Below, one piece after another: positions 16,079 to 50,301 of a DNA stretch of 64,000 nt. How positions within the stretch are numbered: the first letter of the stretch is position 1; each line of letters begins with the position of its first letter. A model generated the notes under the pieces. It worked only from the letters and a program-made list of their open reading frames with translations, was not told the origin of the DNA and ran no database searches. Made by a program: the position numbers and the translations under genes. Source of the DNA: Bacteroidales bacterium (GTDB lineage Bacteria > Bacteroidota > Bacteroidia > Bacteroidales > Muribaculaceae); contig JAAVGM010000014.1 in the NCBI GenBank assembly GCA_014800245.1, forward strand, positions 1-64,000, in the 5' to 3' direction.

Positions 16079-16176
16079 ATCGGTTAAATTAGTAATAAAT
16101 ATACAATCTTCTTTACCCTAAAATCTTTTTCTGTATCATCCCTTTTAAGACGACTTTTTCCCTTTTAAAGACGGCT

Positions 16177-17742: not shown

Positions 17743-17764
17743 CAGTCTTTGCTATTTCATCAAT

Positions 17765-18829: not shown

Positions 18830-18854
18830 CGTATTTTCGCTTTTTTAGGTTAGA

Positions 18855-21038: not shown

Positions 21039-21058
21039 TTCTTTAATGCAGGTTAAGA

Positions 21059-24000: not shown

Positions 24001-24163
24001 GGTCGGTGGTCACACCTGTTGATGTCCCCTTTATCATTACGCTCACACCGATCAGGGGCTCGTTGTCGTTGGCATCTGTCACAACTCCCGTAATCGTTTT
24101 GGCCACAGCCAACTGCGTCACAAGCATTATGGCTGCAAATATTGCAAATATTCGTTGTTTCAT
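21059..24163 (-). CDS. SusC/RagA family TonB-linked outer-membrane protein
   Basis: CarboxypepD_reg-like TITGVVTDANDNEPLIGVSVMIKGTSTGVTTDLDGNYSI; ELDEVVVTGMG; LKDASATAIYGSKGANGVVLITTK. Confidence 0.98.
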   Translation of the reverse strand: MKQRIFAIFAAIMLVTQLAVAKTITGVVTDANDNEPLIGVSVMIKGTSTGVTTDLDGNYSIDVPDGSKTLLFRYVGMKPQEFDINKIGTTLDVAMQTEGELDEVVVTGMGQRKKVTVTGAITTVDVDDMKHISTSNLSNALAGNVPGVIAMQTSGQPGKNKSEFWIRGISTFGAGASAYILVDGFERENIDDLNIEDIENFTVLKDASATAIYGSKGANGVVLITTKHGREGKINVNAKFETSYNTRTKTPAFVDGITYAGLLNEANITRNKGTYFTPTEMELFANGLDPDLYPNVDWKDLILKDGAMSYRANVNVSGGGRLSRYYASISYTEDEGMYKTDSTLRDRYNTNANYRRWNYRVNLDIDATPTTLIRIGTSGDLSLRNAPGMGDGDAWNSLFGYNAILTPIMYSNGYVPMINMNRDEFRTNPWVMTTQTGYRQEWNNNIQNNLSIDQDLKFVTPGLKFSFRFGYDTYNYNYINHLQAPDRWYVNGRDNVTGELIFDKIFDKKDMYQESGNDGSRRTFVDALLTYNRDFGQHNLGATVKYTYDDNISTQNIGDDIKNSIARKNMALAGQVVYNYDYRYFADVNFGYNGSENFAKGHRWGFFPAASVAWNIANEPFMRDVSWMNLLKIRASWGKVGNDKMDTRFPYIYTIDYTGDGVYNFGTLTDPTRDQYQEGLHYAQLAAKNVTWEVSTKFDVGLDINIFNGMFNLTADYFHEKRTGIYMLRNFLPGSLGLESSPWANVGAVKSEGVDGNFAYVDRFGEVSLTVRGNLTYSKNTVLDYDVENSTYPYQFQTGYRIGQQRGLVALGLFSDYDDIRNSPKQMYGEVQPGDIKYKDVNGDGIVDDNDIVAIGATATPSLIYGVGVSVGWRGFDFNVLFQGAGKSSNLISGKTVWAFSQDRYGQILDDLVADRWVDAQTAAQLGIPANENPNASYPRLVYLQGNAAHNNYRASTFWLRDFSYLRLKNLELGYNLPEKWMRAIHFENVRFYVQCNNLLTFSKFKSWDPEMGSSDGEAYPLTKSVTVGVQVSL

Positions 24164-24180
24164 TGGATGTTAGAGTTTGG

Positions 24181-25749
24181 TTATTCTGTTACTTCGGTGT
24201 TTTCTTCTGAGTTATCCTCATTGCCTCCACCGACAATGATATCATCTTCGCGTTCCTTACCGATGGTGCGGATACGACGGTTGTTATGGTCGAGCACATA
24301 GAAACGCTCGCGAACCTTATCGTATGCAATGCCGGTTACGTCGCGGAAACGGGCTGCCTGACGGAGAGATCCATCCTCGGTGCCCCAGATATTACCGTTG
24401 GTTGAAGGAGCGCGGCCTGCATAAGTGCGGACGATACCTTCGGGAGTGAGATAACGCACACAGAAGTTGAGACAGTCGCAGAAATAGAAATCATAAACGT
24501 CATCTTTCCCTTCTTCCTCATACTGCGGATTCTTTACGAACACACCCTGGTAAGGACGGTGCAGACGCGCGTTGGTGCCCACTGCATCAGTCCAGTCTTC
24601 CGAACCGTTGCTTCCGGCCACTACATATGGAGTGGTGAATTCCTTCTTCTCCCAATCATAGTCCGTACGGAGGATATAGCTGCGGTTGATCACCACAATA
24701 TAAGCATAATTTCCGGAAGGATGAATTGTAATCTGGAATTCGTAAGAGGGGTCCTGAATCTTGAAGAGCTCTTTGAAAGCGCCATCCTCTTTATATCCGG
24801 TCCATGTCTTGGTGTTGCCATCCTCATCGGGGATGAAGGAATCGAAATAATCCTGAGGATTCATGCGGAAGAGCTCACCATTAGAATAGGAGTTGAAATA
24901 CACCTCGCCATTCACGGGATGAACTGCCACACCGTTACACTGCTTGTATGCCACCAACGGCTGGCAGGAAGAACGGTCGCTGAATGTGCCGTCGGCGTTG
25001 CGGCTCACAATCCATACTGAAGTGGATTGGTCGTCGTGGTCCGCGCGGTCGGTTGACACCAGCATGTACTGGCCATCGAGTGTGAAGTCGATGTTACGCA
25101 GACGCTGGGTCTGGAACTTATTGGCCGACATCAAAGGGGTGCATTCCCTATTGGCAAGATCAAGCTGTGCGATCATGCCCGCGCCTTTATCATAACAGAT
25201 ATACACGCGATCGGGATAAAGAGGGTCGATTGCAAGACATCCCTCGGCGTTGAAGCCGCAGCAGATATCAAACGATCCCCACAACTCTCCCTGAGAGTCG
25301 TTGTCGTTCTGATAGCCGCAGAGAGTGCCGACCACCGGCTGCGCATCATAAATGAAATTTTTCGGGCTGCTTGCCGAATAGCCCTTGCCATCTCTGTCGA
25401 GAATGGTCAGTTCAATCTCTCCTGAGAACGCCATCGGAGGAACAAAGGCATAAAGCTTGTCGGAGGCGACATTAATCACTGTGGCGTCCTTGCCGCCGAT
25501 CTTAAGCTTTACTGCATCCTTGTCGTTACCGAAGTTTGATCCGTAGATGATCAATTGTTCGTAGGCACTCCCCTTCTCGGGAGTGAACGATTGGATCGAC
25601 ACCGGGAGCGATGAATCGAACGGCTTCGCCTTGGGCGCAGTGATCGTCGTATCATCGTCCTTGCAGGATGACATTGCACTCAACATGATTGTGAGCAACA
25701 CAATCTTTCCAAGAGTGCGGATCTTGTTTTTTAGGTTAGTGCTGTACAT
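24181..25749 (-). CDS. IPT/TIG domain + NHL/beta-propeller lipoprotein
   Basis: LSAMSSCKDD lipobox; FTPEKGSAYEQLIIYGSNFGND (IPT/TIG); propeller segments ending YVLDHNNRRIRTIG. Confidence 0.85.
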   Translation of the reverse strand: MYSTNLKNKIRTLGKIVLLTIMLSAMSSCKDDDTTITAPKAKPFDSSLPVSIQSFTPEKGSAYEQLIIYGSNFGNDKDAVKLKIGGKDATVINVASDKLYAFVPPMAFSGEIELTILDRDGKGYSASSPKNFIYDAQPVVGTLCGYQNDNDSQGELWGSFDICCGFNAEGCLAIDPLYPDRVYICYDKGAGMIAQLDLANRECTPLMSANKFQTQRLRNIDFTLDGQYMLVSTDRADHDDQSTSVWIVSRNADGTFSDRSSCQPLVAYKQCNGVAVHPVNGEVYFNSYSNGELFRMNPQDYFDSFIPDEDGNTKTWTGYKEDGAFKELFKIQDPSYEFQITIHPSGNYAYIVVINRSYILRTDYDWEKKEFTTPYVVAGSNGSEDWTDAVGTNARLHRPYQGVFVKNPQYEEEGKDDVYDFYFCDCLNFCVRYLTPEGIVRTYAGRAPSTNGNIWGTEDGSLRQAARFRDVTGIAYDKVRERFYVLDHNNRRIRTIGKEREDDIIVGGGNEDNSEENTEVTE

Positions 25750-25835
25750 TGTTTTTTAGGTTAGTACTGTACATTTGGTTTTAAAGTTGTTCTCTCTCTC
25801 GGTTCGGAGGATTGCTCCCCCGCGGTTAACAGGTG

Positions 25836-25902
25836 CAAAAATAGCGGTTATTCTTATAATTTAAGGAAAATTTATGTTCAATTTAGTGAAAATTTCTATT
25901 CA
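25836..25902 (-). promoter_or_regulatory. PUL promoter with direct-repeat operator (site A), upstream of the SusC/D operon
   Basis: AATTTATGTTCA at 25869-25880 and AATTTCTATTCA at 25891-25902; minus-strand TATTTTTG at 25836-25843. Confidence 0.65.
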
Positions 25903-25960
25903 ATCATTTCAAAAACAGAATTAATTATTAATTTTGCACTCAATATCTATTTAACCGCCA

Positions 25961-26983
25961 ATGAAAAACCTAATTTTACTCCTGACATTAGCTATCCTGT
26001 CTATTCTTCCCGGATGTGGTTCGCGAGAGGATATTGTGCCTGATAATTCAGACAACATAACAATGTTGTTTGAAGATACATCTTATCCCAATATCTCCGA
26101 ACATAACGGAAAATTCTATTTCATCAGGCAGGATAAGGACATTAAAATATATGAGGCGGAGAATATAGATTCGCTAGCTGCAGCAAAGCCCATTACTGTT
26201 TGGGAAGGTCCGGCCAAAGGGATGAATAACATCTGGGCGCCGGAGATGATCAGGATAAATGGAAAATGGTATATATATTTTGAAGCCGACGATGGCAATA
26301 CTGACAATCATCAGCTCTACGTGATTGAAAATTCTTCCGAGAATCCGACTCAAGGGGAATGGACTCTCCACGGTCCAATCATCACTAACGATGAATGGAA
26401 TTTCGGGATTCATCCCTCCTCTTTTATGATCGGTCGCCGTCAGTTTCTCCTTTGGTCCGGGTGGGAACACCGTCGCTCCGAAACTGAGACCCAATGTATC
26501 TTTATCGCTGAGATGGAGAATCCATGGACTCTTAAATCTCCGCGCATTCTTATATCAAAGCCGGAATATGAATGGGAACGTCAATGGATCAATCCCGACG
26601 GAACACGATCGGCCTACCCTATCTTTGTGAATGAAAATCCCGAACCCGTCCTTTCTCCCGACGGAAAGAAGATTGCAGTGGCCTATTCCGCAAGCGGAAT
26701 CTGGACTCAATTTGCCACTATCGGACTCATCTATGCCGACACATCATCCGATCTCCTTGACCCCGCATCCTGGAAAAAACTTGAAGAGCCCCAGTCTAAT
26801 CCCGGTCTGTTAAATGCGTCAATGACCGGAATCACAAACATTTCCACAATCAATTCCACCGATGGGAAATGTTATATGCTATTCCAGGCCAAAGACTTCA
26901 ACAATGGGGAGAAAGAGTGTGTATTTAAGAAGGCTTTCCGCTGGACCAATAAAGGATATCCCGACTTCGGATTCAATAAATAA
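25961..26983 (+). CDS. GH43-like five-bladed propeller lipoprotein
   Basis: LPGCGSRED lipobox; YPNISEHNGKFYFIRQ, NNIWAPEMIRINGKWYIYFEAD. Confidence 0.8.
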   Translation: MKNLILLLTLAILSILPGCGSREDIVPDNSDNITMLFEDTSYPNISEHNGKFYFIRQDKDIKIYEAENIDSLAAAKPITVWEGPAKGMNNIWAPEMIRINGKWYIYFEADDGNTDNHQLYVIENSSENPTQGEWTLHGPIITNDEWNFGIHPSSFMIGRRQFLLWSGWEHRRSETETQCIFIAEMENPWTLKSPRILISKPEYEWERQWINPDGTRSAYPIFVNENPEPVLSPDGKKIAVAYSASGIWTQFATIGLIYADTSSDLLDPASWKKLEEPQSNPGLLNASMTGITNISTINSTDGKCYMLFQAKDFNNGEKECVFKKAFRWTNKGYPDFGFNK

Positions 26984-27031
26984 AGAAATAAAGTTAAGAA
27001 GTAAATAAGGTTATAAGTAATAAGAAAAATG

Positions 27032-27071
27032 CTTATAACCTTATAACCTTATAACCTTATAACCTTATAAC
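27032..27071. repeat. Tandem repeat (CTTATAAC)x5
   Basis: Five perfect 8-bp units ending one base from the HTCS stop codon. Confidence 0.9.
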
Positions 27072-27072
27072 C

Positions 27073-30000
27073 CTATTTGAACTCGCTTGGCAATACTCCG
27101 AATTTAGCTCGGAAACATTTAGCGAAATAGGAGGATGAGGTGAATCCCACTCGCTCCGAAACTTCCGACACGCGGCAACCGTCTCTCAGAAGCTCTGCCG
27201 CCTTGTTCAATCGGAAATTCTTCAGATATTCATTCGGCGACATTCCGGTCACAGCCGTGATTTTCCTATAGAAAGATGAGCGGCTCATATTCATATTCTG
27301 CGCAAGCACATCTATCGAGAATTCCTCATCTTCCACTGATTCGGATATAATGGAATTCATCTTCTCCAAGAATTCCGTATCAAGTCTGTTCAGACCGGTC
27401 TTTTCCTTGACTGATTCAGCCCCTGTCTCGGCGACAACATCAGATCCGGATTTTACCTCCTCATTGCTTACAGCCGCAGAAGGTTCGGCTGCCGTATCAG
27501 CCACGACAGGAACGATCGAGCCCTTCATTCGTTCATAGAACAGCCGGCGCGTGCGAAGAAGATTCTCTATTTGCAACACAAGCTGACGGATCGGGAAAGG
27601 TTTCTCAAGATATACATCCGCTCCGCAGCTTAATCCCTCCTCATGTGCCTCATCGGTGGTGAGCGCAGTGAGGATAATGAACGGGATATGAGAATATTCA
27701 ATATCATTCTTCACCTTCCGGCAAAGATCCATACCATTCATACGATCCATCATCACATCGCTCACTATCACATCCACATCCTTATCTTTCAGAATTTCGA
27801 GAGCTTCCACTCCATCAGGAGCCGTCACCACATTGTAATATTTTTCGAGCGTGTCGGAGATCATCACCCGCAGATCCTCGTTATCCTCCACAAGCATAAC
27901 TGTGATATCCTTCTTCTCGGGTTCCTTAACATCCGGATTATATGCGTATTCAGTTAATGATCTTACTTCCTCAGCATCGCCTCCTGTCTCGCGAGGGATA
28001 GTCAAGGAGAAGAGAGCCCCGTGTCCTTCAGGATTATCTTCAATGGAAATTTTGCCATTATGCGCTTCGGTGATCAAGCGGGCATAAGCTAAACCAAGCC
28101 CTGTGCCAAGACTCACTGATAACTTCTGGCTCTGAATCTGATAATACGTATCAAAAACCCTCTTACGTTCCTCTTCCGGAATCCCCACTCCATCATCAGA
28201 TACAGAGATGTTCACATTTTCCGGATCATCGGTCGTGAGCTTCACGCATATAAGGGATTCAGCATATTTCATAGCATTCCCTATGAGATTCATCAAAACT
28301 CTTTCAAGCTTATCCACATCCCCTTTTATCCACACTTCCCCTTCGGGCAAGGAGCAGTCGAGGCGTTTCTCTCCAAGTCTGAGAGGTTCTTCGAAACGAT
28401 GGCATATTCTCCGGATCAATGCGCATAGATCAAAGCGATAGATATTCAGTTTCACTTCGCTTTGCTTCTCCGCCTTGCGGAAATCGAGAAGCTGATTGGT
28501 GATTCCAAGCAGGTAGTCCACATTCTCCTGCATCGATTTCACATATTTATGGCTTTCTGCATATACCTTCTCTTCCGGTTTTTGCTCTATCTCCTCTTTC
28601 AGCTGCTCCAATGGCATGCTGATAAGCATGAGCGGAGTGCGGATTTCATGCACGAGATCCACAAAATAGCGAGTCTTGGCCTCAAAGGTTTCTCGCTCCT
28701 GTATCTTCTGGATCTCTTCAATTGCCTTGATGCGCTTTTTATCTACAAGTTTCTTTATAGCCCGGAACAAGCCCCACCCGAAAAGGGCAATAAGCACAAG
28801 ATAGGCCACGATTGCCCAGAAAGAGAGATACCAAGGGGGCGTAACCTCTATTTTCAGGGTCTTGGTCTCGGCATTCTCCATTCCATGCGGACGCACAAGA
28901 AACTCATACTCTCCGGGAGAGAGATTGTTATAGGTCACTTCAGGCACACTCACCCCCATGATCCAATCTTTGTCGATCCCTTTCAGCATATAATCAAATT
29001 TGATATCAGGGTCCACAAGTGGATGGATTCCGGAAATCTGGATTGTAAAGGTGTTGTATTTATAAGGAAGCTTTATGCTTTTCTGCATCACCAACGCAAA
29101 CGACTGCCCCAGTTCCTTGAGCTTATCGAATCCATCCTCAAGGAATGGGAAGGAGAGAGCTGAGGCATAGGCAAATGTGGAATTCTCCGACACCTTCAGT
29201 TTTGAGGGGTCGATGATAAGGAAGCCATTGTTGGCGCCCATCGCCGTCAAGCCGTTTTTAAGTTCTATTGCAGTGGATGCCATAGGATTATGAGCGCCGT
29301 ATCTCCGCATATCAAAATCGAATTTACGATTCTCTATCGGATTTTTCACCATCTCTTCTGCCGGCACCATGCCGAATCTTCTTTCCTGAGGCACTTTTCG
29401 GAAGAAACCATAATTCGCCGTTCCGATCCATAAGGTTCCGTCGCGCTCCTCTTTAAAAGATATTGCACGTATATTCTGTCCGAACTCAGGGAGTTGCGGA
29501 AAATTATCATGTATCCTGTCATAGCGGCACACTCCCCAGTTGGTCAATATCAGCACTTCTCCGCCCGATGTGATCCCTATATGATTGATTTCATTGCTCA
29601 CAATGCTATATGGGATATTCTCGTCATAGGTGTAATGTCGCGTTTCGCCGCTGGATAAATCGTGGCGATAAACACCTCTATTCTTTGTGCCGATCCATAG
29701 TTTATCTCCATCGAGGGCAAGAGTCCTTACAGGGAGGCCGGATAGGCTGCCATCGGTCAATGGTTCAAACTGACGCGTGGAGAGATTGTAAAGGAACAGA
29801 CCTCTATCGCTTCCGACCCATAAATGGCTGCCATCGGCAGAAGCGGCAAAGGAGCGGACCACAGCATTTCTCATCCCTCCCCCTTCTGCGGAAAGAGCCA
29901 CGAAACGGATGGGACCCGGCTGAATCATCATCACCTCAATAGGCGCACCGGGCCGAACTATCACGATATTGCCGTCCGGACTCTCGGAAATTGAGGCTAT

Positions 30001-30903
30001 GGTCTGGCCCTCATATAAATCAATGGATCTTAGGGGCTTTATTTCGGAGAAATCCCCTGTCACTGTGCCATACCGCCATATCCCATCTTCTGTGCTCATG
30101 ATCAGATTGCCGTCCGGACGAGCCATGAGAGTATTCACCGTACCCTGAAGTCCGCTTGCTGCCATTGGAGTGATTGAGCCTGTCTCTCGGTTGAGACAGA
30201 AGAGATGTGATCCCGACCCCACCCATATATTACGTCCGGAAGAAGCAAGATAGAAAGGATTCTTGTCGCTCACATAGTCGGGCAGCCTATATTCCTTCAC
30301 CATCACCCCGTCGTGGCGGAATGATTGAATCTTCCCGTCGTAGGTCACGGCATATATCAATCCGTCAGCGCCCTGGGCTAAATCAGAATAGAAGGATCCG
30401 TGACGGCTGTCCTGATGAAGACTGCCGGTTTCAGGATCATATATAAAGAGTCCCTGCCCTTGAGTGGCAATCCATATCTTATTGCTTGATCCCTTGAACA
30501 CCTTTCTGACACGGCTGCTTATCACAACGCCGTATTTGGTCTTCCTGCCGAATCTTTCCAATTCATTTTTTTGTCGGTCATATACATATAGACCTTTATC
30601 CACCCCTATCCAGATATTCTCGCCGTTTTCGAACAATGTTGTGACCGACAGATTCCTCAAGGGATGCAACACATCAAATTGCGACCCGAACAAGGTGTGT
30701 CCGTTGCAGTCATAAACATCCACGCCGGATTCCGTGCCTACCCATACAAAGCCATTCTTGTCTTGCAGGAATACTCGGTTTTCTGTGTCGCGTGCAATCT
30801 CGGTGGGCACCACCTCATAGGAAATATCGGCAGAAAATGCCAATCCCCGGCATATGAATATGCCGAGGATGATTATAATATGAGTGAATATAAATCTTCT
30901 CAT
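27073..30903 (-). CDS. Hybrid two-component system regulator (propeller sensor, Y_Y_Y, HisKA, HATPase, receiver, AraC HTH)
   Basis: FVDLVHEIRTPLMLISMPLEQL; DDGVGIPEEERKRVFDTYYQ; VIVSDVMMDRMNGMDLCRKVK; C-terminal AraC HTH SEVSERVGFTSSSYFAKCFRAKFGVLPSEFK. Confidence 0.97.
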   Translation of the reverse strand: MRRFIFTHIIIILGIFICRGLAFSADISYEVVPTEIARDTENRVFLQDKNGFVWVGTESGVDVYDCNGHTLFGSQFDVLHPLRNLSVTTLFENGENIWIGVDKGLYVYDRQKNELERFGRKTKYGVVISSRVRKVFKGSSNKIWIATQGQGLFIYDPETGSLHQDSRHGSFYSDLAQGADGLIYAVTYDGKIQSFRHDGVMVKEYRLPDYVSDKNPFYLASSGRNIWVGSGSHLFCLNRETGSITPMAASGLQGTVNTLMARPDGNLIMSTEDGIWRYGTVTGDFSEIKPLRSIDLYEGQTIASISESPDGNIVIVRPGAPIEVMMIQPGPIRFVALSAEGGGMRNAVVRSFAASADGSHLWVGSDRGLFLYNLSTRQFEPLTDGSLSGLPVRTLALDGDKLWIGTKNRGVYRHDLSSGETRHYTYDENIPYSIVSNEINHIGITSGGEVLILTNWGVCRYDRIHDNFPQLPEFGQNIRAISFKEERDGTLWIGTANYGFFRKVPQERRFGMVPAEEMVKNPIENRKFDFDMRRYGAHNPMASTAIELKNGLTAMGANNGFLIIDPSKLKVSENSTFAYASALSFPFLEDGFDKLKELGQSFALVMQKSIKLPYKYNTFTIQISGIHPLVDPDIKFDYMLKGIDKDWIMGVSVPEVTYNNLSPGEYEFLVRPHGMENAETKTLKIEVTPPWYLSFWAIVAYLVLIALFGWGLFRAIKKLVDKKRIKAIEEIQKIQERETFEAKTRYFVDLVHEIRTPLMLISMPLEQLKEEIEQKPEEKVYAESHKYVKSMQENVDYLLGITNQLLDFRKAEKQSEVKLNIYRFDLCALIRRICHRFEEPLRLGEKRLDCSLPEGEVWIKGDVDKLERVLMNLIGNAMKYAESLICVKLTTDDPENVNISVSDDGVGIPEEERKRVFDTYYQIQSQKLSVSLGTGLGLAYARLITEAHNGKISIEDNPEGHGALFSLTIPRETGGDAEEVRSLTEYAYNPDVKEPEKKDITVMLVEDNEDLRVMISDTLEKYYNVVTAPDGVEALEILKDKDVDVIVSDVMMDRMNGMDLCRKVKNDIEYSHIPFIILTALTTDEAHEEGLSCGADVYLEKPFPIRQLVLQIENLLRTRRLFYERMKGSIVPVVADTAAEPSAAVSNEEVKSGSDVVAETGAESVKEKTGLNRLDTEFLEKMNSIISESVEDEEFSIDVLAQNMNMSRSSFYRKITAVTGMSPNEYLKNFRLNKAAELLRDGCRVSEVSERVGFTSSSYFAKCFRAKFGVLPSEFK

Positions 30904-30924
30904 TATAACCGATTTAAATATCGA

Positions 30925-31122
30925 ATAAGTAGCTGCGAATAATTAATGAACAGATAAAACGAAGTTATTTTTGAGCAGATTTTGCTGCGGAATGAAGGAG
31001 CATACTTTCGTATGCGACTGAATGACAAAGCAAAATATGCCAAAAAGAACGAGTTTTAGCGTTCAAGATATTCCCAATTACTTTGTTTAACATATATCGA
31101 TTAATTATTCGTAGCTACTTAT
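30925..31122. repeat. 198-bp nested inverted-repeat element
   Basis: Outer arms 30925-30947 and 31100-31122 (one mismatch), imperfect inner arms 30948-30986 / 31029-31064, apical hairpin GCATAC-TTTC-GTATGC at 31000-31015. Confidence 0.8.
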
Positions 31123-31179
31123 AATTCTAAATGTGTGTAAAATATATCAGGTTAGCCTGCGTTGGCTCCTGCCATTTTT

Positions 31180-33237
31180 CTATTTCTCCTCCGCTTTTGG
31201 GAAAGCTGAGATTCTAAGCCTTGCCGCGCCCATCGGAATCAGACGGATATTTCTCTTTTCTTCCGAACGGGGAGCATACTTTGTGGGGAGAAGATCGGTC
31301 ATCCCGGTCTCGTCATAACCCCACGAAGGGATCTCAACTCCGACGGCCGTAAATTCAAAAGGCACGCTTTCCGCAGTGAAGGGGAAATTATTGGAGGGCC
31401 ATTCTTTCTTATTTACGTTAAAGTTAGCAGGTTTATTGCCTTTATCCATCACTAAAGCATAATTCCATTTGGAATTTGGCTTCAACACATAGCAGGGCCA
31501 GAGGGAAGCATCCACGCCTGCCTGCCAATGGGAGTCGTCTTGATTGAATTCCGGATCACGGCTGTCGTGCTGCTCGAAATTCTCATCTATGGCAAGTGAA
31601 AGAGTCAGCGGACCGTAATTTACGCTTACGCTCCCTTTATTCTGCTCCCATGTGTCAACGCTCATCTCCATCGGGAATGTCAGCTCCACCTTATCGTTGT
31701 TCTTCCAGGTGCGGTTGAGACATACATATTTCCCTGTTGCGCCTTCTGCTGCTACAGCTTCGCCATTCACCTTCACTGTCGCGCCGTTGGCCCATTCGGG
31801 AATGCGGAGATAGAGGGGGAATGCCACATCGCCGTCAGAGGCAAGGGTGATCGTAACATTCTCATCGAAGGGATAGTTGGTGGTCTGCGTCAAGGTTACA
31901 TTCTTCCCCTCTGCGCCTACCTTGGCAGTGGTTTCATTGGCGGTGTAGAGCATTGTTGCCAGGCCGTTGTCGGCTGTTGCCATCACAAGATGCTCGGCAT
32001 AATAGGGCCATCCCATTCCATGGTTGTGCTGGCAGCAACGGCTGCTGAAGGGACTCATCGAAAGCATTCCGCGAAGGTTGTTGTCGATGCTGGGGCCATG
32101 AAGTTTCTCATCGCTTATCGCCATGTTGGGAGAGGTGATATAACGGAGAGCCTTCATGTCGGGAGTGAGGGCTGCCGTGAATGTATTGAGAGCCACATTC
32201 TCGCAATGGTCGGCCCAGAAGGGGTCGCCGGTGATACCCATAAGAATCTCATCGCTCGCCATCTGCTCCACCACTGCGCAGGTCTCTGCTCCCTGACGGG
32301 GATCGAAATATCCTGAGCGTGCATTCTCGTCGGCTCCATACATCCCGCCTGGCACCTGTCCGTAACGGTTGCGCATCGTGTTGAATGAATTATATGTGGC
32401 CTGAAGCATTGAGGGATCTTTGGAATACATATAATATGTGGCGGGTTCGCGGAAACCTTGGGCCACATTCACGCCATGCCAGTTGGGAAGGTCGTTGTCC
32501 ATTGCCCAGTTGGAGGTGTTCTTGTGAAGCTTCTCGATAAGGGGAAGGAGTGATTCATCTCCTGTGCGGTTGTAAAGCCAGAGCACGCTCCAGAGGTTGT
32601 CGCCGCCGCGTTTCTCCTGCCATAGTCCTTTGAGGAATTGCGAATCGGGCACATTCATCTCCCATTTGAAATAGTCGGTCATCGCCGGAAGCACACGGGC
32701 GTCGCCGGAATATTCATAATAGGTCTGCAGAGCCCAGAGCATCACCATCTGCGCCCAAAGTTCGGGATTGCCGTTCTCATAGTTGTGAGGTCCGAGGAAG
32801 CCATCTGATTTGAGATTGGAAAGCACTGCATCAAACCACACCTGTGCCTCTTTCTTCATCTCCTCGTCGTCGAGGATATAGGCGAGGCTGCAATAGCCGC
32901 GGAGCCAGTAAGGCACCTCCTCCCATCCATGGTCGCCGGCGTCGGATAGCCATTGGTTGTTGTTCTTGTCGAGCCAGTCGCTCACTGTGCCGAGCTTGCC
33001 GTTCAACCCGTCTTTCTGACGAAGCAGGTATTCGCGCAGCCATCCCTGCGGCTTGATTGATCCTACGGGGAGTTTGAGGAGCGGAGCTTCCACAAGCGGA
33101 GCGCGGAATCCTACATAGTTGGTTGATGTTCCGGTCTGCGGTTTATCCACCACAGTTGAGGTCTGAGCCTGCGCTGTAAACATTCCTGATGCAGCGATCA
33201 AAGCCGCTGCAAAGGCTTTGCTATATATAGAGTTCAT
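31180..33237 (-). CDS. GH127/DUF1680-family glycoside hydrolase
   Basis: Signal peptide; LKLPVGSIKPQGWLREYLLRQKDGLNGKLG; WEEVPYWLRGYCSLAYIL; MSPFSSRCCQHNHGMGWPYYAEHLVMAT. Confidence 0.8.
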   Translation of the reverse strand: MNSIYSKAFAAALIAASGMFTAQAQTSTVVDKPQTGTSTNYVGFRAPLVEAPLLKLPVGSIKPQGWLREYLLRQKDGLNGKLGTVSDWLDKNNNQWLSDAGDHGWEEVPYWLRGYCSLAYILDDEEMKKEAQVWFDAVLSNLKSDGFLGPHNYENGNPELWAQMVMLWALQTYYEYSGDARVLPAMTDYFKWEMNVPDSQFLKGLWQEKRGGDNLWSVLWLYNRTGDESLLPLIEKLHKNTSNWAMDNDLPNWHGVNVAQGFREPATYYMYSKDPSMLQATYNSFNTMRNRYGQVPGGMYGADENARSGYFDPRQGAETCAVVEQMASDEILMGITGDPFWADHCENVALNTFTAALTPDMKALRYITSPNMAISDEKLHGPSIDNNLRGMLSMSPFSSRCCQHNHGMGWPYYAEHLVMATADNGLATMLYTANETTAKVGAEGKNVTLTQTTNYPFDENVTITLASDGDVAFPLYLRIPEWANGATVKVNGEAVAAEGATGKYVCLNRTWKNNDKVELTFPMEMSVDTWEQNKGSVSVNYGPLTLSLAIDENFEQHDSRDPEFNQDDSHWQAGVDASLWPCYVLKPNSKWNYALVMDKGNKPANFNVNKKEWPSNNFPFTAESVPFEFTAVGVEIPSWGYDETGMTDLLPTKYAPRSEEKRNIRLIPMGAARLRISAFPKAEEK

Positions 33238-33279
33238 CTCGTTATCGTTAAATTGAATTGCGTTAGATTATCTTTAGGT

Positions 33280-34590
33280 TTATTTAATGATGATTTTCTT
33301 TCCATTGCGGATATAGATCCCGGGATCGAGAGTTTCAGCGGATGTGCCGAGATATTGTCCCTGAAGATTATATATCTTATTGTCGGAAATCTTTTCATTC
33401 TCAACGGTTCCGACAGCGGAAGGATTCATATTATCAATCTTTCCTTCAATCAGCAGGCCGAAATCCACATGGCCTCCGCCTCCTCCCTGACGAAGAGAGA
33501 CAGCCAATATGTTATCCCCTTCTACAAGAAGATTCTTCTGTTTATCTGTCAGAATGGTTTTGTCATAATTATTATCGTTCCATCCGGTGCGACTCCAGAA
33601 TTTCTCGCCGTTGAGGTATGCTATCGGTTCCTCATCGTAGCTGCAGGAGAATGTGAGCTGCGAGTCGCCGATTATTGCCAAATCCTCTGCCGAGAGATTG
33701 AAGTGGCGGCGGATAAGGATTGGTCGGAGCTGACTTGCCCATTCTGTTGTGAGGAACATATCATCACTATTACTGAAAGGTCCAACACCCTTAATCCAAT
33801 CGGATTCATTCTCTGTGGTGCTATACCATTCCGCTTTTTCAGCGTCAGCGAAATCATTGTTGTAGTTGAGGAAATAATAGGAGCATGGCCATGCTCCGTC
33901 GTCGAGCGTAGGAAGGAACGCCTGCACCATCGACATATCGGCGCCATAGAGTCCGCAGTCGGCGAAAGCGCCTCCCCAGTTCTGATGCACATGCACGGCA
34001 AGAATATTTTCCGATCCATCGGTCTTGATAAGATCTTTCTGTTCATCGGTGAGGAGAACATACTCATCATTATTCCACCCATCGGATGCGCTTGCCACTT
34101 TCACTCCGTTGATATACCATTCTGCCGGAGCATCATCATGTCCCATTGCAAGATATACCTCCTTATAGAGAAGTTCGTCGGGGGTGAGGGTGAAGCTGCG
34201 GCGCATATACATCTCCCCCATCATTTCAGCGGCGGCCCACTGATAGGATTTCTGCCCAAGATAGGTTGCGTCGGAGCTGAAAGGTGCTTTCTGAGTGGTC
34301 CATTCTCCGGAAGACACTTCTGAAGGATTGTATTCCGGTTCATACCATTCTTTGCCGGCATTGTCGGCTGAAGGGGCAGACAGAATCTTATTATAATTTT
34401 CATCGGAATATCTGTCCCCCTTGACCACCCACACAAGAGCTTCATAAGGGGAAGCCGGTGTGTATTGCGATGAAGGAAGGATCACGTTCCGGGCATTGAA
34501 CGAAGTCTTGATCTCTGCCTCTGCCCCTTTAGCTGAGAAAGGGATAAAGGCACTGATAGCCACGCCCACAATAAGGAGTCGTTTCATCAT
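33280..34590 (-). CDS. Secreted protein with two galactose-binding-like modules and a C-terminal sorting-type tail
   Basis: Two copies of YINGxK/YLNGEKFW...LTDEQKDL...ENILAVHVHQNWGGAFADCGLYG; ends IYNLQGQYLGTSAETLDPGIYIRNGKKIIIK. Confidence 0.75.
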   Translation of the reverse strand: MMKRLLIVGVAISAFIPFSAKGAEAEIKTSFNARNVILPSSQYTPASPYEALVWVVKGDRYSDENYNKILSAPSADNAGKEWYEPEYNPSEVSSGEWTTQKAPFSSDATYLGQKSYQWAAAEMMGEMYMRRSFTLTPDELLYKEVYLAMGHDDAPAEWYINGVKVASASDGWNNDEYVLLTDEQKDLIKTDGSENILAVHVHQNWGGAFADCGLYGADMSMVQAFLPTLDDGAWPCSYYFLNYNNDFADAEKAEWYSTTENESDWIKGVGPFSNSDDMFLTTEWASQLRPILIRRHFNLSAEDLAIIGDSQLTFSCSYDEEPIAYLNGEKFWSRTGWNDNNYDKTILTDKQKNLLVEGDNILAVSLRQGGGGGHVDFGLLIEGKIDNMNPSAVGTVENEKISDNKIYNLQGQYLGTSAETLDPGIYIRNGKKIIIK

Positions 34591-34671
34591 AGATTTTTGG
34601 TTTATTGAGCAGTTGGTTAAAAAATATTCGCTTATAGCATTTCGCTAATGCTGATTTGTAGATTACGGAAG

Positions 34672-34737
34672 CAAAATTAGCTATTAATATCTCTTTATTG
34701 GGAAATAATCTATTCATATAATGAAATTTTCTATTCT
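34672..34737 (-). promoter_or_regulatory. PUL promoter with 21-bp direct-repeat operator (site B)
   Basis: Plus strand CTATTCA at 34710 and CTATTC at 34731; minus-strand -7 TAATTTTG at 34672-34679. Confidence 0.7.
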
Positions 34738-34761
34738 TTCGCCTAAAAATCAAATAAAAAA

Positions 34762-34783
34762 GCGGCCGCCTCACGGCAGCCGC
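34762..34783 (-). terminator. Rho-independent terminator of the 34839-37634 gene
   Basis: GCGGCCGCC-TCAC-GGCAGCCGC followed on the minus strand by a T-tract. Confidence 0.85.
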
Positions 34784-34838
34784 CCATTATGTGGAAATTA
34801 GATGTGTGTCTCTTCTTTATCTTATTTATCTTAAAAAT

Positions 34839-37634
34839 TTATTTTACAATAAATTTCTTGCCATTCTGAATATAGATTCCGGGAACAGTTGCATCGTTCA
34901 CGCGGATACCCTGGAGATTATAGATCGGACCATCGATTGCCTCTTCAGCCACCTCTACATCCTCTACACTATTCTGGCTGTTGCCGCCAAGATATTTAAG
35001 ACGGAAATTGTCGAGAACAATCCAGTCGCCTTCGAAGTCTCTCTTATCCTTTGCCACTCCGATTTTTACTGAATGAAGAGTCGGCTCACCCTCAGCTGCC
35101 ACAACAGGCTCATCGGTCTTATCTGAAATATTGAAACTCAAAGTTGTTTTATAAAGACCGCTCTTGAAGAATCTTACAGCCTCATTGCAGCTATTGGGGA
35201 AGTTATAGACAACGTCACCATCATCTGTGGAAACGACTCTTGTTGTGCCTTCACCCGGAGCCTGGTTGTTTCCTTCGAGGATATTGGGAAGTTCTGTTTT
35301 TTCCAAATCAGCGAAGAGATATGCATGGCTTATTGCAGGATTTGTGAGCTGAGGATCAATCTCGCCGTTGCGATAATAACCCTGAACTGACAATTCATAC
35401 TGACCGGCAGGAAGACCCTCTACCACCTGAGAAACGCTCATATTCTCAGAGCCATAAGATTCGAGAGTCAATTCGTGATGGTTGTCGCCTCTACCCCATG
35501 TGTTAGTGTTCACCTGAATCCAAGGTTCGATATTCTCACGCTGGCTGAAGTTCGGGCTGGCGATATAATAGGTCATATCCACAGGATTCTCGGCAGAAGC
35601 CTCTGCAATAAGAGCGTCGCGCTCGGCGCGTGTCACAAGTTTCCACTGTGCATTGAGATCTTGGAGATCAATATTACGCGATTCAGTGCATACGTTGGTT
35701 TCATCATTGTTTCCGGCATCTGTGCGTCCGTAAGGATTCCACATTACATATACATCGGGATAACCACCCTGAACCATATGGAACACGTTCTCTTTCCCTT
35801 CTACGGGTACGAATGCCCATCCGTCGCTTTCATCTCCACGCTGGCCATCCATATATCCGCCGTAAGCCAAATAGTCATGGTCTTGGTTGAAAAGGCCGGT
35901 ACGGATAATAAATGATTCGCAACCATTCTCAGAATCAGCCACCTGCTCGTCGAGTGTGATCTCTACGCCGGGCATACCAAGGGCTGCATGTGCGCCCCAG
36001 TCACTACCACCGCAGAGGAACTGCTTGCGGCCAAGGTTATAGAGATAGTATCTACCTCCTACCTCAGGCTTTGCGCCTTCGAATACATCCTCATGAGTAT
36101 CGGCGGCTGCCACGCGGCGAGCATAACGCAAGGTCTGGAGAGCCTTGGCAAAATCCTCGCGGCTTGTTGCGGTGGCAAACTGATTAGAGGCCTCTTCATC
36201 CTCAACGCCAAGCATCATTGTCGCCATGAATGCCTCGATATCGCCCATTGAATCTTTTGCTGTATTGACAGCTTCTCTGAGGGTATTGATAGCCGCATTC
36301 AAAGCATCAGCATCTTTTGCCTCCTCAAAAGCTTCCTCGGCTTCTTCAAGAGCAGCATCAAGGAAGGGAAGCATCGGAGCTGTTTCTAAAATATCATTTG
36401 CTTCATTGATCAGAGACTCAAGGATAGACTGAAGCGGAGAAAGATCTGCCTTCTCCTCATATACATACCCTTCGCAAGGATAATCTATATAAAGAGCATA
36501 CTCGGCATGTCCGCCACCGGCGCCACGCTGTGCCGACATTCCAAGCACATTGTCTCCCTCGCGAAGAAGTTTCTTCTGTTCGTCGGTCAAGGTGTAGGTG
36601 GCATAATTATCATCGTTCCAACCATTCTCTCTCCAGATCTCTGTTCCGTTAAGATAGATTACAGGGAACTCGTCGTAACTGCTTGTGATATGGATTGTGC
36701 CATGGTCAAGAAGGGCTTCCAAACTTGACGCGCTGAGATAGAAATCACGACGGATCAAGATAGGATGATTGTCGCTGTCCCAACGGGTGATATTCCATCG
36801 GTCGTCGCCATTGCTGAAAGGACCCATTGCCGGTGTCCAATCTGTCAAGTCGGCATCCACATCAAAACATCCTTCGGCTACAGCATCTGCTATCTGTTCG
36901 TTTTCATCAAGGAGCTTGTAGGAACATGTCCAAGAAGAACCTTCACCACCTTTATCAAGGATATATAGATAGCCGTCGGAGCCATAAAGACCGCAGTCGG
37001 CATAAGCGCCGCCCCAGTTCTGATGAACATGAACTGCCATTAGGTTCTCTCCTACCTTGAGTGCGGATTTCCCCTCATCTGTTAGAAGAACAACCTTCCC
37101 TTCATCCCATCCGTCACTCTCTGTATGAACCTTTACTCCGTTGATATACCATTCTGATGGAGCGTCATCGCGGCCACACTGAAGATAGATCCCTCCTTCG
37201 GGAATTTCATCAAGAGTGAATGTGCGGCGAAGATAGATATCTCCCATGATTTCGCTGGCAATCCATTTATCTGTGGTAAACGGAGAGGACATATTAGTCC
37301 ATTCTATTTCTTCATCTTTGTAGTCGTAGAGATCGGAAGGATCGGCTTTACCCGAAGTCAAGGTATAACCCTCTTCATACCATTTCTTTCCGTTGGCATC
37401 ATCTGCAGGAGTGCCCCATACATGATTGTAAACGTCATCACGGTTTCGGTCTCCAAAGGCCACATGGGTGTTAATGATCCAGGCATCTGCATTCCAAATC
37501 TGATCTCCCGTATAATGTGAAGAAGGGAGAATCACTTTGTCACGATTGAAACTTTGTTCAATCCTGCCATTGTTGGCTAACCCGGAGAAGGCCATTGTCC
37601 CCACGGCTAAGCCAAAGAGTAGGTTTCTTTTCAT
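34839..37634 (-). CDS. Large secreted multidomain protein (galactose-binding-like modules, helical linker, beta-rich module, sorting-type tail)
   Basis: WYINGVKVHTESDGWDEGKVVLLTDEGKSAL...AVHVHQNWGGAYADCGLYG; YYLYNLGRKQFLCGGSDWGAHAALGMPG; tail GIYIQNGKKFIVK. Confidence 0.75.
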   Translation of the reverse strand: MKRNLLFGLAVGTMAFSGLANNGRIEQSFNRDKVILPSSHYTGDQIWNADAWIINTHVAFGDRNRDDVYNHVWGTPADDANGKKWYEEGYTLTSGKADPSDLYDYKDEEIEWTNMSSPFTTDKWIASEIMGDIYLRRTFTLDEIPEGGIYLQCGRDDAPSEWYINGVKVHTESDGWDEGKVVLLTDEGKSALKVGENLMAVHVHQNWGGAYADCGLYGSDGYLYILDKGGEGSSWTCSYKLLDENEQIADAVAEGCFDVDADLTDWTPAMGPFSNGDDRWNITRWDSDNHPILIRRDFYLSASSLEALLDHGTIHITSSYDEFPVIYLNGTEIWRENGWNDDNYATYTLTDEQKKLLREGDNVLGMSAQRGAGGGHAEYALYIDYPCEGYVYEEKADLSPLQSILESLINEANDILETAPMLPFLDAALEEAEEAFEEAKDADALNAAINTLREAVNTAKDSMGDIEAFMATMMLGVEDEEASNQFATATSREDFAKALQTLRYARRVAAADTHEDVFEGAKPEVGGRYYLYNLGRKQFLCGGSDWGAHAALGMPGVEITLDEQVADSENGCESFIIRTGLFNQDHDYLAYGGYMDGQRGDESDGWAFVPVEGKENVFHMVQGGYPDVYVMWNPYGRTDAGNNDETNVCTESRNIDLQDLNAQWKLVTRAERDALIAEASAENPVDMTYYIASPNFSQRENIEPWIQVNTNTWGRGDNHHELTLESYGSENMSVSQVVEGLPAGQYELSVQGYYRNGEIDPQLTNPAISHAYLFADLEKTELPNILEGNNQAPGEGTTRVVSTDDGDVVYNFPNSCNEAVRFFKSGLYKTTLSFNISDKTDEPVVAAEGEPTLHSVKIGVAKDKRDFEGDWIVLDNFRLKYLGGNSQNSVEDVEVAEEAIDGPIYNLQGIRVNDATVPGIYIQNGKKFIVK

Positions 37635-37739
37635 AAAAAGTTGGTTAAAATAGTAAGTTGGTTTTATAATAAGTAAAGTTGTTCAATAAGTATGGTATAG
37701 ATGTGTATATACTTTTCTTATTAGAGCTTTTCACTGACG

Positions 37740-37804
37740 CAAAATTAGTCTTTTTCTGCCCCCAAATAGGAGAATTTCTATTCATAAAACAGAATTTTCT
37801 ATTC
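37740..37804 (-). promoter_or_regulatory. PUL promoter with 21-bp direct-repeat operator (site C)
   Basis: CTATTCA at 37778 and CTATTC at 37799; minus-strand TAATTTTG at 37740-37747. Confidence 0.7.
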
Positions 37805-37830
37805 TTTTCGCCTAAAAATCAAATAAAAAA

Positions 37831-37854
37831 AGCGGCTCCCTTTCGGAAGCCGCT
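37831..37854 (-). terminator. Rho-independent terminator of the 37878-40658 gene
   Basis: AGCGGCTCCC-TTTC-GGAAGCCGCT, minus-strand T-tract follows. Confidence 0.85.
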
Positions 37855-37877
37855 TAATATTTAAGCTCTATTCAAGA

Positions 37878-40658
37878 TTATTTCACGATGAACTTCTTGC
37901 CATTCTGAATGTAGATGCCGGGAACTGTTGCGTCCTTCACCTGAACACCCTGGAGGTTGAAGATGCGGCCATCAAACTGGTTTGCCGCGGGAGTTGTTAC
38001 GATCTCCTCAACGCCGTTCTGATTCTCAAGAGCATCCTTCACTGCATCCACTGTTGTGTCTGCACCGTAGTAAACTACGCGGAAGTTGTCAGCAACTACC
38101 CAGTCGCCTTCTTCGCCCTTCTCATCTTTATAGATACCGAGAGGCAGATCGTTGCCATCCTCATGATTGATCACGGTGTAAACTGTGTAGAGACCGCTCT
38201 TGAAGAAGTGAGTAGCCTGTACGATACCATCAGGGATGTTATATACAGTCTGCTCCTCATTATCGGCTACTGCATTGTTACCCTCACCCGGAGCATTGTT
38301 AGCCTCAGCAAGGATGTTGGGGAGTGCTACGTCGTCAGCGCTGTCATTGCCTGCATAGAAGAATGCATTCTGGAGAGGCTCAAGGTTAGCCTGATCGCCA
38401 TGATTACCGTTACGGTAGAAACCCTGAACATATGCTACATATACACCGCCGGGGAGACCCTCTACGTTCTGGTTGAGTGCACAGTTATCTGTGTTATAAG
38501 ACTCTATTGCAAAGTCATAGTGGTTGTTGCCACGCTCCCAGATTGAACAAGTTTCACCTGTTTCCCAGTTGGATACATCTGCACGTTGGTTGAAGCCGGG
38601 GTTCTGGATATAGTAAGAGAGATCCACGGGGTTCTCAAGAGATGCTTTCTCGATGAGTGCGTCGCGCTCCTCGCGAGTCACAAGCATCCACTGTGCGTTA
38701 AGATCTTCAGGATCCACGTCGTGAGACTCAGTGCATACATTCTGCTCATCATTGTTGCCTGCATCTGTTGATCCGTAAGGATTCCACATCACATAGACAT
38801 CTGAATAGTCGCCCTGAACCATGTTGAACACATTCTCTTTGCCATCAACGGGAACGAATGCCCAGCCACCCTGGCTGTTATTCCAATCGCCGTCCATGTA
38901 ACCACGGTAAGAGAGATAGTCGTGTATCGGCTGGTCATCGCTGGGATTGTTAAGACCTGTACGGATCACGAAGCTGTCAAACCCTTCGTTCATACCCTTT
39001 GACGGACCCACGAGCTCATCAAGAGTGATCTCTGTGCCGGGCATACCGAGAGCTGCGTGTGCACCCCAGTCGCTACCACCTGTAAGGAACTGCTTGCGAC
39101 CTACATTATAGAGGTAGTAAGACTTACCCTCCTCAGGCTTAGCGCCCTTGAATTCGTGGTTTTCTGTTACAGCGGCCTGCACGCGGCGAGCGTAACGGAG
39201 AGTACGGATAGCATCGCCATATTCGCCGGCTGTCTTGGCTACATTAAACTGCTCAGTGGCTTTTTCATCCTTGATGAAATCCTGAGTTGCCCAGAATGCC
39301 TTAATATCATTCTCAGCACGTTTAATCTCCTTGACATCCTTTTCGAACGACTCGATAGCCGCCAACAAAGATGCTGATGTGGCATCCTCATTTGCAAGCG
39401 CATCCTTAGCTTCTTCAATTGAAACTACGAATGTAGGAGTCTGGGGAAGTTTGGCTGCCTCATCGATAAGAGCCTGAAGCTGTGCCTGAAGACCTGTCAA
39501 ATCCTCATCAACGAGCTTCTCGCCACGATACTCAAGCATATATTTCTTAAATACAAGCCAGTCGCGATGATCTGCAGCTGTCTTCTTCACACCGATAGTA
39601 AGATTGCCGTCTGCCACCGGAGCTACTGCCCAATCATTGATATAATGACCTGCAAACATCGCACGGGAAGCATCATCCAAACTATTGGGAACCCATTTCC
39701 CTGCTATCTCATATGAGAACCCTTCTGACTGCTCGGGGGCTGCATCTGCATAGATTGACATGAAATTCTTGGAGTCGGCACCTGCATAATACTGGCAACG
39801 GTCGAGAACCTCTGTGCCTTCAAGCATACGCTGTGCAAGTTCCTCTGATTCAATCTCTGTGTCGCGATAGTAACCCTGTACTGAGAATGCGTACGTTCCT
39901 TTAGGAAGATCTGTAAGGGTGATCGACTCGCTCATAAGAGCCTGATGCCAATATTCTGCTACCGGATAACCTCTGAGACCGCCACCGCTGCGTACTATTC
40001 CACTGCCGTTGTTTTCATCGGAATAATTGTAGAGGCGGTCGCGCATGTTGCTTGTACTACGGTCGTTCCATGGAATCAACCATGTAGCGTCAACCGATCC
40101 ATTAGCTTTTGCATCTGCCTGCATCTTCTTAAGACGCTCTTCGCGGCTTACGAGCTGCCATGTCTTACCTTCAGGATTATCGGAAAGACCGCCGAACATT
40201 GCTTCAGCATTATAACCGATGAAAGTGTCATTCTCGATATGGCTGCGCATATTGGGAGTCTCATCCTCATTATATCTCGGACGAGCCTTGATCATGATGG
40301 TGTAGCCGTCGCCGCTGGGAGTGAAGATCCAGTCGGAAAGCTCGCGATTACCCTGATCGAGGAAGAAACGATCTTCGTCAGAACCATTTAGCTCTCCATT
40401 GTTGGTGAAGTTACAGAAAATCTGATAGCCTTCGAAGCCTTCAATCTTTTTAAGCTCGACCTCCATACCGATTTTACCAAGTGCGGCATGAGTGTTCCAC
40501 TCATCCAACTCGCACATGTTGGGTTCGAGCCACTGATCACTCTCTACTTGATAGAGGTAATACTTACCCTCTGCAGGTGCGCTTCCCTCAAAGGGTGAAG
40601 CCGCAAACAACGGAAGACCCGCTGCGAGGGCTAACGCAAATAGAAAAGGTTTTTTCAT
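37878..40658 (-). CDS. Large secreted multidomain protein, paralogue of 34839-37634
   Basis: Two beta-rich modules (EGKYYLYQVESDQWL...NTHAALGK; EGKSYYLYNVGRKQFLTGGSDWGAHAALGMPG); same tail GIYIQNGKKFIVK. Confidence 0.75.
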   Translation of the reverse strand: MKKPFLFALALAAGLPLFAASPFEGSAPAEGKYYLYQVESDQWLEPNMCELDEWNTHAALGKIGMEVELKKIEGFEGYQIFCNFTNNGELNGSDEDRFFLDQGNRELSDWIFTPSGDGYTIMIKARPRYNEDETPNMRSHIENDTFIGYNAEAMFGGLSDNPEGKTWQLVSREERLKKMQADAKANGSVDATWLIPWNDRSTSNMRDRLYNYSDENNGSGIVRSGGGLRGYPVAEYWHQALMSESITLTDLPKGTYAFSVQGYYRDTEIESEELAQRMLEGTEVLDRCQYYAGADSKNFMSIYADAAPEQSEGFSYEIAGKWVPNSLDDASRAMFAGHYINDWAVAPVADGNLTIGVKKTAADHRDWLVFKKYMLEYRGEKLVDEDLTGLQAQLQALIDEAAKLPQTPTFVVSIEEAKDALANEDATSASLLAAIESFEKDVKEIKRAENDIKAFWATQDFIKDEKATEQFNVAKTAGEYGDAIRTLRYARRVQAAVTENHEFKGAKPEEGKSYYLYNVGRKQFLTGGSDWGAHAALGMPGTEITLDELVGPSKGMNEGFDSFVIRTGLNNPSDDQPIHDYLSYRGYMDGDWNNSQGGWAFVPVDGKENVFNMVQGDYSDVYVMWNPYGSTDAGNNDEQNVCTESHDVDPEDLNAQWMLVTREERDALIEKASLENPVDLSYYIQNPGFNQRADVSNWETGETCSIWERGNNHYDFAIESYNTDNCALNQNVEGLPGGVYVAYVQGFYRNGNHGDQANLEPLQNAFFYAGNDSADDVALPNILAEANNAPGEGNNAVADNEEQTVYNIPDGIVQATHFFKSGLYTVYTVINHEDGNDLPLGIYKDEKGEEGDWVVADNFRVVYYGADTTVDAVKDALENQNGVEEIVTTPAANQFDGRIFNLQGVQVKDATVPGIYIQNGKKFIVK

Positions 40659-40812
40659 AAATTTAGATTAGTAAAAAATTATTGTTTTTTGGTTTTTATT
40701 TTTGGTTAGGTTGCCGAGCGGATTCGCACTCTGGCAGTGTGTCGTGTGCCGTGAGTCAGGTTTGCTAATTTGAGTTTTTCATCCACCGATTTCATGGCAT
40801 CGTTTACGGAGG

Positions 40813-40878
40813 CAAAATTATTGCTTTTATATTTAGCGGAAAGAAAATTTCTGTTCATTAAACAATAATTTCTATTCA
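40813..40878 (-). promoter_or_regulatory. PUL promoter with 21-bp direct-repeat operator (site D)
   Basis: CTGTTCA at 40851 and CTATTCA at 40872; minus-strand TAATTTTG at 40813-40820. Confidence 0.7.
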
Positions 40879-41027
40879 AACACCCCTAAATTTCAGCATT
40901 TAACACTTTGAGCAGACAATTCTGCACAAAATAAACTGATGAATGAACAAATATTTTTATCCTTATATATTTCCTTTAATTAACTTTGCGATATAAATCC
41001 TAATTACACAACACTAACAACAACGAC

Positions 41028-45560: not shown

Positions 45561-45571
45561 AACCTATAGCT

Positions 45572-46537: not shown

Positions 46538-46542
46538 TTCTA

Positions 46543-50300: not shown

Positions 50301-50301
50301 A

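What the first reader, a model, noticed from the sequence alone, without database searches (positions are those of the whole stretch)
25836..40878. Shared operator/promoter architecture before four PUL transcription units: candidate HTCS regulon code
Four intergenic regions (A 25869-25902, B 34704-34737, C 37773-37804, D 40845-40878) each hold two copies of AATTTCTATTCA-like half-sites (plus-strand reading; ATGTTCA/CTGTTCA variants) with a 21-bp period (22 bp at A). In each, a minus-strand TAnnTTTG box (25836, 34672, 37740, 40813) lies 30-31 bp from the proximal half-site. This precedes the IPT/SusC/SusD operon, the 33280-34590/GH127 operon and both large paralogues. AraC-family activators bind tandem half-sites about 21 bp apart next to the promoter (araI1-I2), and the locus HTCS (27073-30903) ends in an AraC domain. 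That the HTCS binds these sites is inference.
Basis: partly seen in the sequence, partly recalled or inferred. Interest (0 to 1): 0.82.

Follow-up and report, generated by a model that had tools for sequence, protein, structure and literature searches.

The report
HTCS tandem operators of mannan regulon
A sensor-regulator gene in this bacterium most likely switches on a set of mannan-digesting genes by binding a two-copy DNA address (copies 21-22 bases apart, exactly 36 bases from the promoter box) that occurs six times in its genome and is conserved in relatives; the kind of switch is already known, and this regulon is a new example of it.

Summary
All four sites are present. In each, the proximal half-site (TGAAYAGA-type, transcription-strand reading) starts exactly 36 bp before TAnnTTTG, and half-sites are 21 bp apart (22 at A). 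A sixth lies on contig C4 before another paralogue. A profile built only from relatives' sites ranks exactly these six first in the 2.15-Mb genome. Equivalent operators precede orthologous genes in G026, G016, G107 (same genus) and G238 (another genus), all with an HTCS whose DNA-binding domain is 54-61% identical. The 97 other genus genomes searched give no match of 25 bits or more. B and C share flanks by duplication, so they are not independent. HTCS binding remains inferred but well supported. The architecture is not new: tandem repeats averaging 21 bp were predicted for 16 B. thetaiotaomicron HTCSs in 2013, and phosphorylation-dependent HTCS binding to PUL promoters was shown by EMSA in 2024. 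This is a new member of a known kind: a probable alpha-mannan regulon with a sharply defined operator-promoter spacing.

The parts
25836..25902 (-). Operator A plus -7 box (TATTTTTG at 25836-25843): half-sites TGAATAGAAATTTTC / TGAACATAAATTTTC, period 22; before the IPT-SusC-SusD-DUF4973-GH76-epimerase operon (25749 to 14936)
34672..34737 (-). Operator B plus -7 box: AGAATAGAAAATTTC / TGAATAGATTATTTC, period 21; before 33280-34590 and GH127 (31180-33237)
   Evidence: shares flanks with C
37740..37805 (-). Operator C plus -7 box: AGAATAGAAAATTCT / TGAATAGAAATTCTC, period 21; before paralogue 34839-37634
   Evidence: shares flanks with B
40813..40878 (-). Operator D plus -7 box: TGAATAGAAATTATT / TGAACAGAAATTTTC, period 21; before paralogue 37878-40658
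40924..40988 (+).
   Evidence: equivalent divergent operators before orthologous genes in G016, G026, G107, G238
27073..30903 (-). HTCS: Reg_prop propeller sensor, Y_Y_Y, HisKA, HATPase, receiver with SHIP motif, AraC-type HTH; presumed binder of the operators
14936..25749 (-). Operon A: IPT/TIG protein, SusC, SusD, DUF4973/BT_3044-like, GH76, aldose 1-epimerase
31180..34590 (-). Operon B: 436-aa protein without Pfam match above cut-off, GH127
34839..37634 (-). Unit C: 931-aa large paralogue
37878..40658 (-). Unit D: 926-aa large paralogue, with CBM16/CBM61-like domain matches in a moderate-confidence model
41028..52503 (+). Operon E: GtaA/GH2, GH43, GH92, GH125, 733-aa unknown; ROK kinase, mannose-6-phosphate isomerase and GHMP kinase follow to 55916 after a 158-bp gap

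Best explanation
The sites are activator operators of the HTCS encoded at 27073-30903. On sensing a mannan-derived ligand the HTCS autophosphorylates, its receiver releases the AraC-type DNA-binding domain, and a dimer binds two half-sites (TGAAYA followed by TT about 10 bp on) in direct repeat 21-22 bp, two helical turns, apart. The proximal half-site starts exactly 36 bp before the TAnnTTTG (-7) box, so its inner edge lies where a -33 element would be. No -33 TTTG is conserved there, so the bound protein probably stands in for it and recruits RNA polymerase (class II-like activation). Five operators in the window and one on contig C4 co-induce the SusC/SusD, GH76/GH92/GH125, GH127 and large-paralogue units as one regulon. 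Shown here: sequence, spacing, genome specificity, conservation, co-occurrence with one HTCS DNA-binding class. Inferred: binding, phosphorylation dependence, activation, ligand.
For: Exact architecture and leave-one-out recovery. Only six strong sites in the genome, all before PUL genes or their paralogue. Half-site matrix without the promoter box: 9 of 14 matches in orthologous loci have the box at exactly 36 bp against 0 of 18 in 583 kb of other loci (about 1e-15). Of 101 genus genomes, matches of 29 bits or more only in the four with this HTCS class; new places outside the training set precede GH125, GH76 and GH31 genes beside GH92. Untrained G238, another genus, has four operators at the expected genes. 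DNA-binding domain 54-61% identical where the operator exists, 41-46% where it does not. HTCS tandem repeats of 21 bp predicted in B. thetaiotaomicron (PMC3878776); EMSA of HTCS fragments on susCD promoters (PMC11253607).
Against: No binding, expression or TSS data. The relatives' sites were first recognised with a window-derived matrix, so the profile test is not fully blind, and all four operator-positive genus genomes contributed training sites. B and C are duplicates. E has a weak distal half-site. The C4 contig has its own AraC protein. The genome is 70% complete, so other regulators may be missing. Operator-HTCS co-occurrence could partly reflect inheritance of the whole locus.
Confidence: 0.85

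Rival explanations
1. A different AraC-type regulator (the 558-aa TPR-AraC on C4, the periplasmic-binding-type HTCS on C27, or an unbinned regulator) binds some or all of the sites.
For: The genome has 15 HTH_18 proteins, one of them about 7.5 kb from the C4 site; a second HTCS lies on C27.
Against: Operators cluster around the window HTCS and its orthologues in five other genomes; the TPR-AraC HTH is dissimilar; the C27 HTCS sits beside its own SusC gene, which has no operator.
Confidence: 0.1
2. The repeats are generic A/T-rich upstream promoter elements or shared ancestry of duplicated promoters, with no dedicated regulator.
For: Sites are about 75-80% A+T; B and C are duplicates with shared flanks.
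Against: Absent before the rest of the genome's promoters and from 97 genomes of the genus; A, D and E share only the operator; half-sites and box are kept across relatives while the DNA between them is unconserved.
Confidence: 0.04
3. The sites are operators of the HTCS, but it acts there as a repressor.
For: Position next to the core promoter does not by itself fix the sign.
Against: No overlap with the -7 box and no conserved -33 element, as in activator-dependent promoters; an HTCS mutant of B. xylanisolvens loses expression of its PUL (PMC4855328).
Confidence: 0.01

Closest known systems
HTCS regulons of Bacteroides (Ravcheev et al. 2013, PMC3878776), notably HTCS_Man-1/2/3 (BT2628, BT3302, BT3786)
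   Same: Two direct-repeat sites about 21 bp apart (two 16-bp sites with a 5-bp spacer in HTCS_Man), before SusC/SusD and mannosidase operons near the HTCS gene, occasionally a distant member.
   Different: Different lineage; half-site letters could not be compared (motif logos and RegPrecise not readable here); the exact 36-bp operator-to--7 spacing was not found stated in the text read.
BT4124 and BT4663 HTCSs binding the bt4114 and bt4662 promoters (Gao, Wu and Stock 2024, PMC11253607)
   Same: Receiver with S/CHIP motif and AraC-type HTH; promoters of susCD operons as targets.
   Different: Binding there was shown by EMSA; here it is inferred. Different glycans.
HTCS of PUL 43 controlling a remnant PUL in B. 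xylanisolvens (PMC4855328)
   Same: One HTCS acting on a distant locus, as proposed for the C4 operator.
   Different: Shown by mutation there; xylan, not mannan.
E. coli AraC at araI1-araI2 (general knowledge, not tested)
   Same: Two direct-repeat half-sites about 21 bp apart beside the core promoter.
   Different: Sigma-70 -35/-10 promoter and a free cytoplasmic sugar-binding regulator; here a membrane sensor-kinase fusion and a Bacteroidota -7 promoter.

Membership tests
HTCS tandem-repeat operator (Ravcheev 2013) | Direct repeat of two sites, mean distance 21 bp | tested here: met
   21, 21, 21, 22 bp at B, C, D, A; 21 at E and C4
HTCS tandem-repeat operator (Ravcheev 2013) | Lies before SusC/SusD and glycosidase operons of the PUL that holds the HTCS gene | tested here: met
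HTCS tandem-repeat operator (Ravcheev 2013) | Conserved at orthologous operons where the HTCS orthologue is present | tested here: met
   G026, G016, G107, G238; G122 partly masked
HTCS tandem-repeat operator (Ravcheev 2013) | Bound by the HTCS | not testable with these tools
   needs EMSA or footprint
HTCS tandem-repeat operator (Ravcheev 2013) | Half-site letters match the published HTCS_Man motif | not tested
   logos and RegPrecise not held
Hybrid two-component system (27073-30903) | Periplasmic sensor with Reg_prop and Y_Y_Y, HisKA, HATPase, receiver and AraC-type HTH in one chain | tested here: met
Hybrid two-component system (27073-30903) | S/CHIP receiver motif tied to phosphorylation-gated DNA binding | tested here: met
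   SHIP read in the sequence; meaning from PMC11253607
Bacteroidota sigma-ABfr promoter | TAnnTTTG at -7 | tested here: met
   all five window sites and C4; start sites not mapped
Bacteroidota sigma-ABfr promoter | TTTG at about -33 | tested here: not met
   no conserved TTTG between proximal half-site and -7 box in the 23-site profile; consistent with activator dependence

The most novel reading that the evidence does not exclude
The exact 36-bp spacing of proximal half-site to -7 box, kept while the distance between half-sites may change by 1 bp, means that this membrane-tethered HTCS contacts the Bacteroidota primary sigma factor directly in place of a -33 element. With the 21-bp period this would give a usable rule for reading HTCS operators from sequence alone.
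Probability: 0.4. Interest if true: 0.5.

Novelty: new member of a known kind. Interest (0 to 1): 0.36.

Why it matters
HTCSs are a major class of switches that decide which glycans gut Bacteroidota eat, yet few of their DNA addresses have been tested. This gives a clean operator definition, a bounded regulon with one distant member, a conserved operator-promoter spacing and a ready set of relatives, so that HTCS specificity and the way it activates -7 promoters can be tested with short DNA fragments.

Tried and rejected
The genome-contig search with the full HTCS found only a 28% relative and a distant kinase; the useful relatives came from the genome search. I tested whether the 36-bp spacing is universal for HTCS promoters: period 21 is enriched before TAnnTTTG near 83 other HTCS loci (26 boxes, against 20 at period 22 and 5-15 at the others, at 9 of 12 identical), but the repeats there lie at varied distances (about 27-40 bp and further), so exact 36 is a property of this regulon and not shown to be general. 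No operator was found for the HTCS gene itself or for the divergent GH43 at 25961. Weak hits such as C11:93796 (E 0.04) and G026:C17:58968 (24.6 bits) were not taken up. Foldseek whole-chain matches of a paralogue to Cry proteins have TM 0.12 and were discarded as meaningless. A half-site-like hit at 30895 lies inside the HTCS coding start and is taken as chance.

Full report
CHECK OF THE OBSERVATION. All four sites are present. Read on the transcribed (minus) strand they are TGAATAGAAATTTTC/TGAACATAAATTTTC (A), AGAATAGAAAATTTC/TGAATAGATTATTTC (B), AGAATAGAAAATTCT/TGAATAGAAATTCTC (C) and TGAATAGAAATTATT/TGAACAGAAATTTTC (D), with periods of 22, 21, 21 and 21 bp. The distance from the first G of the proximal GAA to the T of TAnnTTTG is 36 bp in all four. 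When the half-site matrix is built from three sites, the fourth still ranks in the top four of the 64-kb window at 33-40 bits; the best other match is 24 bits or less and overlaps a site; the shuffle maximum is 20 bits.

GENOME-WIDE. The window lies on contig 14 of a 2.15-Mb, 70%-complete assembly. The pattern GAAYAG-N15-GAAYAG-N30-TANNTTTG gives B, C and D with 0 mismatches and C4:32253-32317 with 1; the 22-bp version gives A with 1; all other hits have 3 mismatches and equal the reversed-pattern control in number. A profile built only from relatives' sites ranks A, C, B, D, C4 and E as the six best places in the genome (E 5e-6 to 0.009; next 0.04). The relatives' sites had first been recognised with a window-derived matrix, so this is strong but not fully blind.

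Site E (40924-40988, + strand) lies back-to-back with D and precedes the 41028-45560 GtaA/GH2 gene and its operon. Its distal half is poor, but proximal half, spacing and box fit, and the same divergent pair of operators lies between the orthologous genes in G016, G026, G107 and G238. The sixth operator (C4) precedes a third paralogue of the large proteins (47% identical) on another contig. B and C share a terminator and an almost identical flank, so they arose by duplication.

RELATIVES. A matrix of the A-D half-sites, without the promoter box, was run over 170 kb of loci that carry the orthologous genes: 14 matches above 11 bits, 9 of them with a -7-like box at exactly 36 bp. In 583 kb of other loci there were 18 matches, none at 36. 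With a box rate of 0.6% in A/T-rich DNA this is about 1e-15 after allowing 60 offsets. Of the 18 operators listed, 16 have the box at 36, one at 37, and one has a degenerate box. In 101 genomes of the genus, matches of 29 bits or more occur only in G000, G016, G026 and G107. All four supplied training sites, so the informative results are the absence of matches of 25 bits or more elsewhere, and the places not in training: G016:C35 (BNR/GH31/epimerase operon, 38.6 bits), G107:C39:22748 (GH125, 31 bits) and G016:C11 (GH76, 25.5 bits), each divergent from a GH92 gene. G122 has a partly N-masked equivalent. G238, from another genus and not used in training, has four operators at the expected genes (18-35 bits).

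THE REGULATOR. 27073-30903 is a full HTCS with the SHIP receiver motif that Gao et al. tie to phosphorylation-gated DNA binding (PMC11253607). Its DNA-binding domain is 54-61% identical to those of the operator-bearing genomes, which share SYFAKCF in the second helix-turn-helix, and 41-46% identical to HTCSs of G116, G032 and G389, whose loci lack the operator. It is the only protein with a Y_Y_Y match in the genome, but a second, periplasmic-binding-type HTCS (C27) and other AraC proteins exist.

HOW IT PROBABLY WORKS. The 23-site profile shows TGAAYA followed by TT about 10 bp on, in each half-site, the proximal half better conserved, then about 20 mostly uninformative bases, then TAnnTTTGC. 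Two contacts one turn apart per half-site, and two half-sites two turns apart, is what an AraC-type dimer on one DNA face would need (general knowledge). No -33 TTTG is conserved. I infer class II-like activation, the proximal monomer taking the place of the -33 contact. The controlled genes (GH76, GH92, GH125, SusC/SusD, with mannose-6-phosphate isomerase and a ROK kinase downstream) point to alpha-mannan, with GH127 and GH43 suggesting arabinofuranose decorations; the ligand is inference.

WHAT IS KNOWN. Ravcheev et al. 2013 predicted for 16 B. thetaiotaomicron HTCSs direct repeats with a mean distance of 21 bp and proposed dimers with both monomers on the same side of the DNA, including three alpha-mannan HTCSs (PMC3878776). 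EMSAs of HTCS fragments on susCD promoters exist (PMC11253607). HTCS control of genes in a second locus was shown in B. xylanisolvens (PMC4855328). So this is a new regulon of a known kind. What I did not find stated in the passages read is the exact operator-to-promoter spacing; near 83 other HTCS loci the 21-bp period is enriched but the distance to the box is looser, so I do not claim a general rule.

VERDICT. Observation confirmed, interpretation supported, kind already known; moderate interest because the case is unusually clean and directly testable.

Noticed in passing
window 25724-25773: Near-perfect 25-bp tandem duplicate (TTGTTTTTTAGGTTAGTGCTGTACA, 96%) between operator A and the start region of the IPT gene; role unknown.
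   Followed up: no
window 34839-40658; G000 contig C4:32397-35024: Large secreted paralogues without Pfam family, three copies in this genome and tandem pairs in relatives; the 926-aa one gives an AlphaFold model of pLDDT 71 with local matches to CBM16 and CBM61 modules, so perhaps surface glycan-binding proteins.
   Followed up: partly
window 34590-34839 and 37634-37878: Terminator-plus-operator stretch duplicated between the two intergenic regions, showing how an operator can spread with gene duplication.
   Followed up: partly
L159:12822 (+), G238: An extra tandem TGAACAGG pair, 22 bp apart, directed away from the operator at 12744-12811 with no -7 box in reach.
   Followed up: no
window 25929-25983: The divergent GH43 gene has its own TAATTTTG box but no operator at the 36-bp spacing, so it may lie outside the regulon despite its place between HTCS and operator A.
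   Followed up: partly
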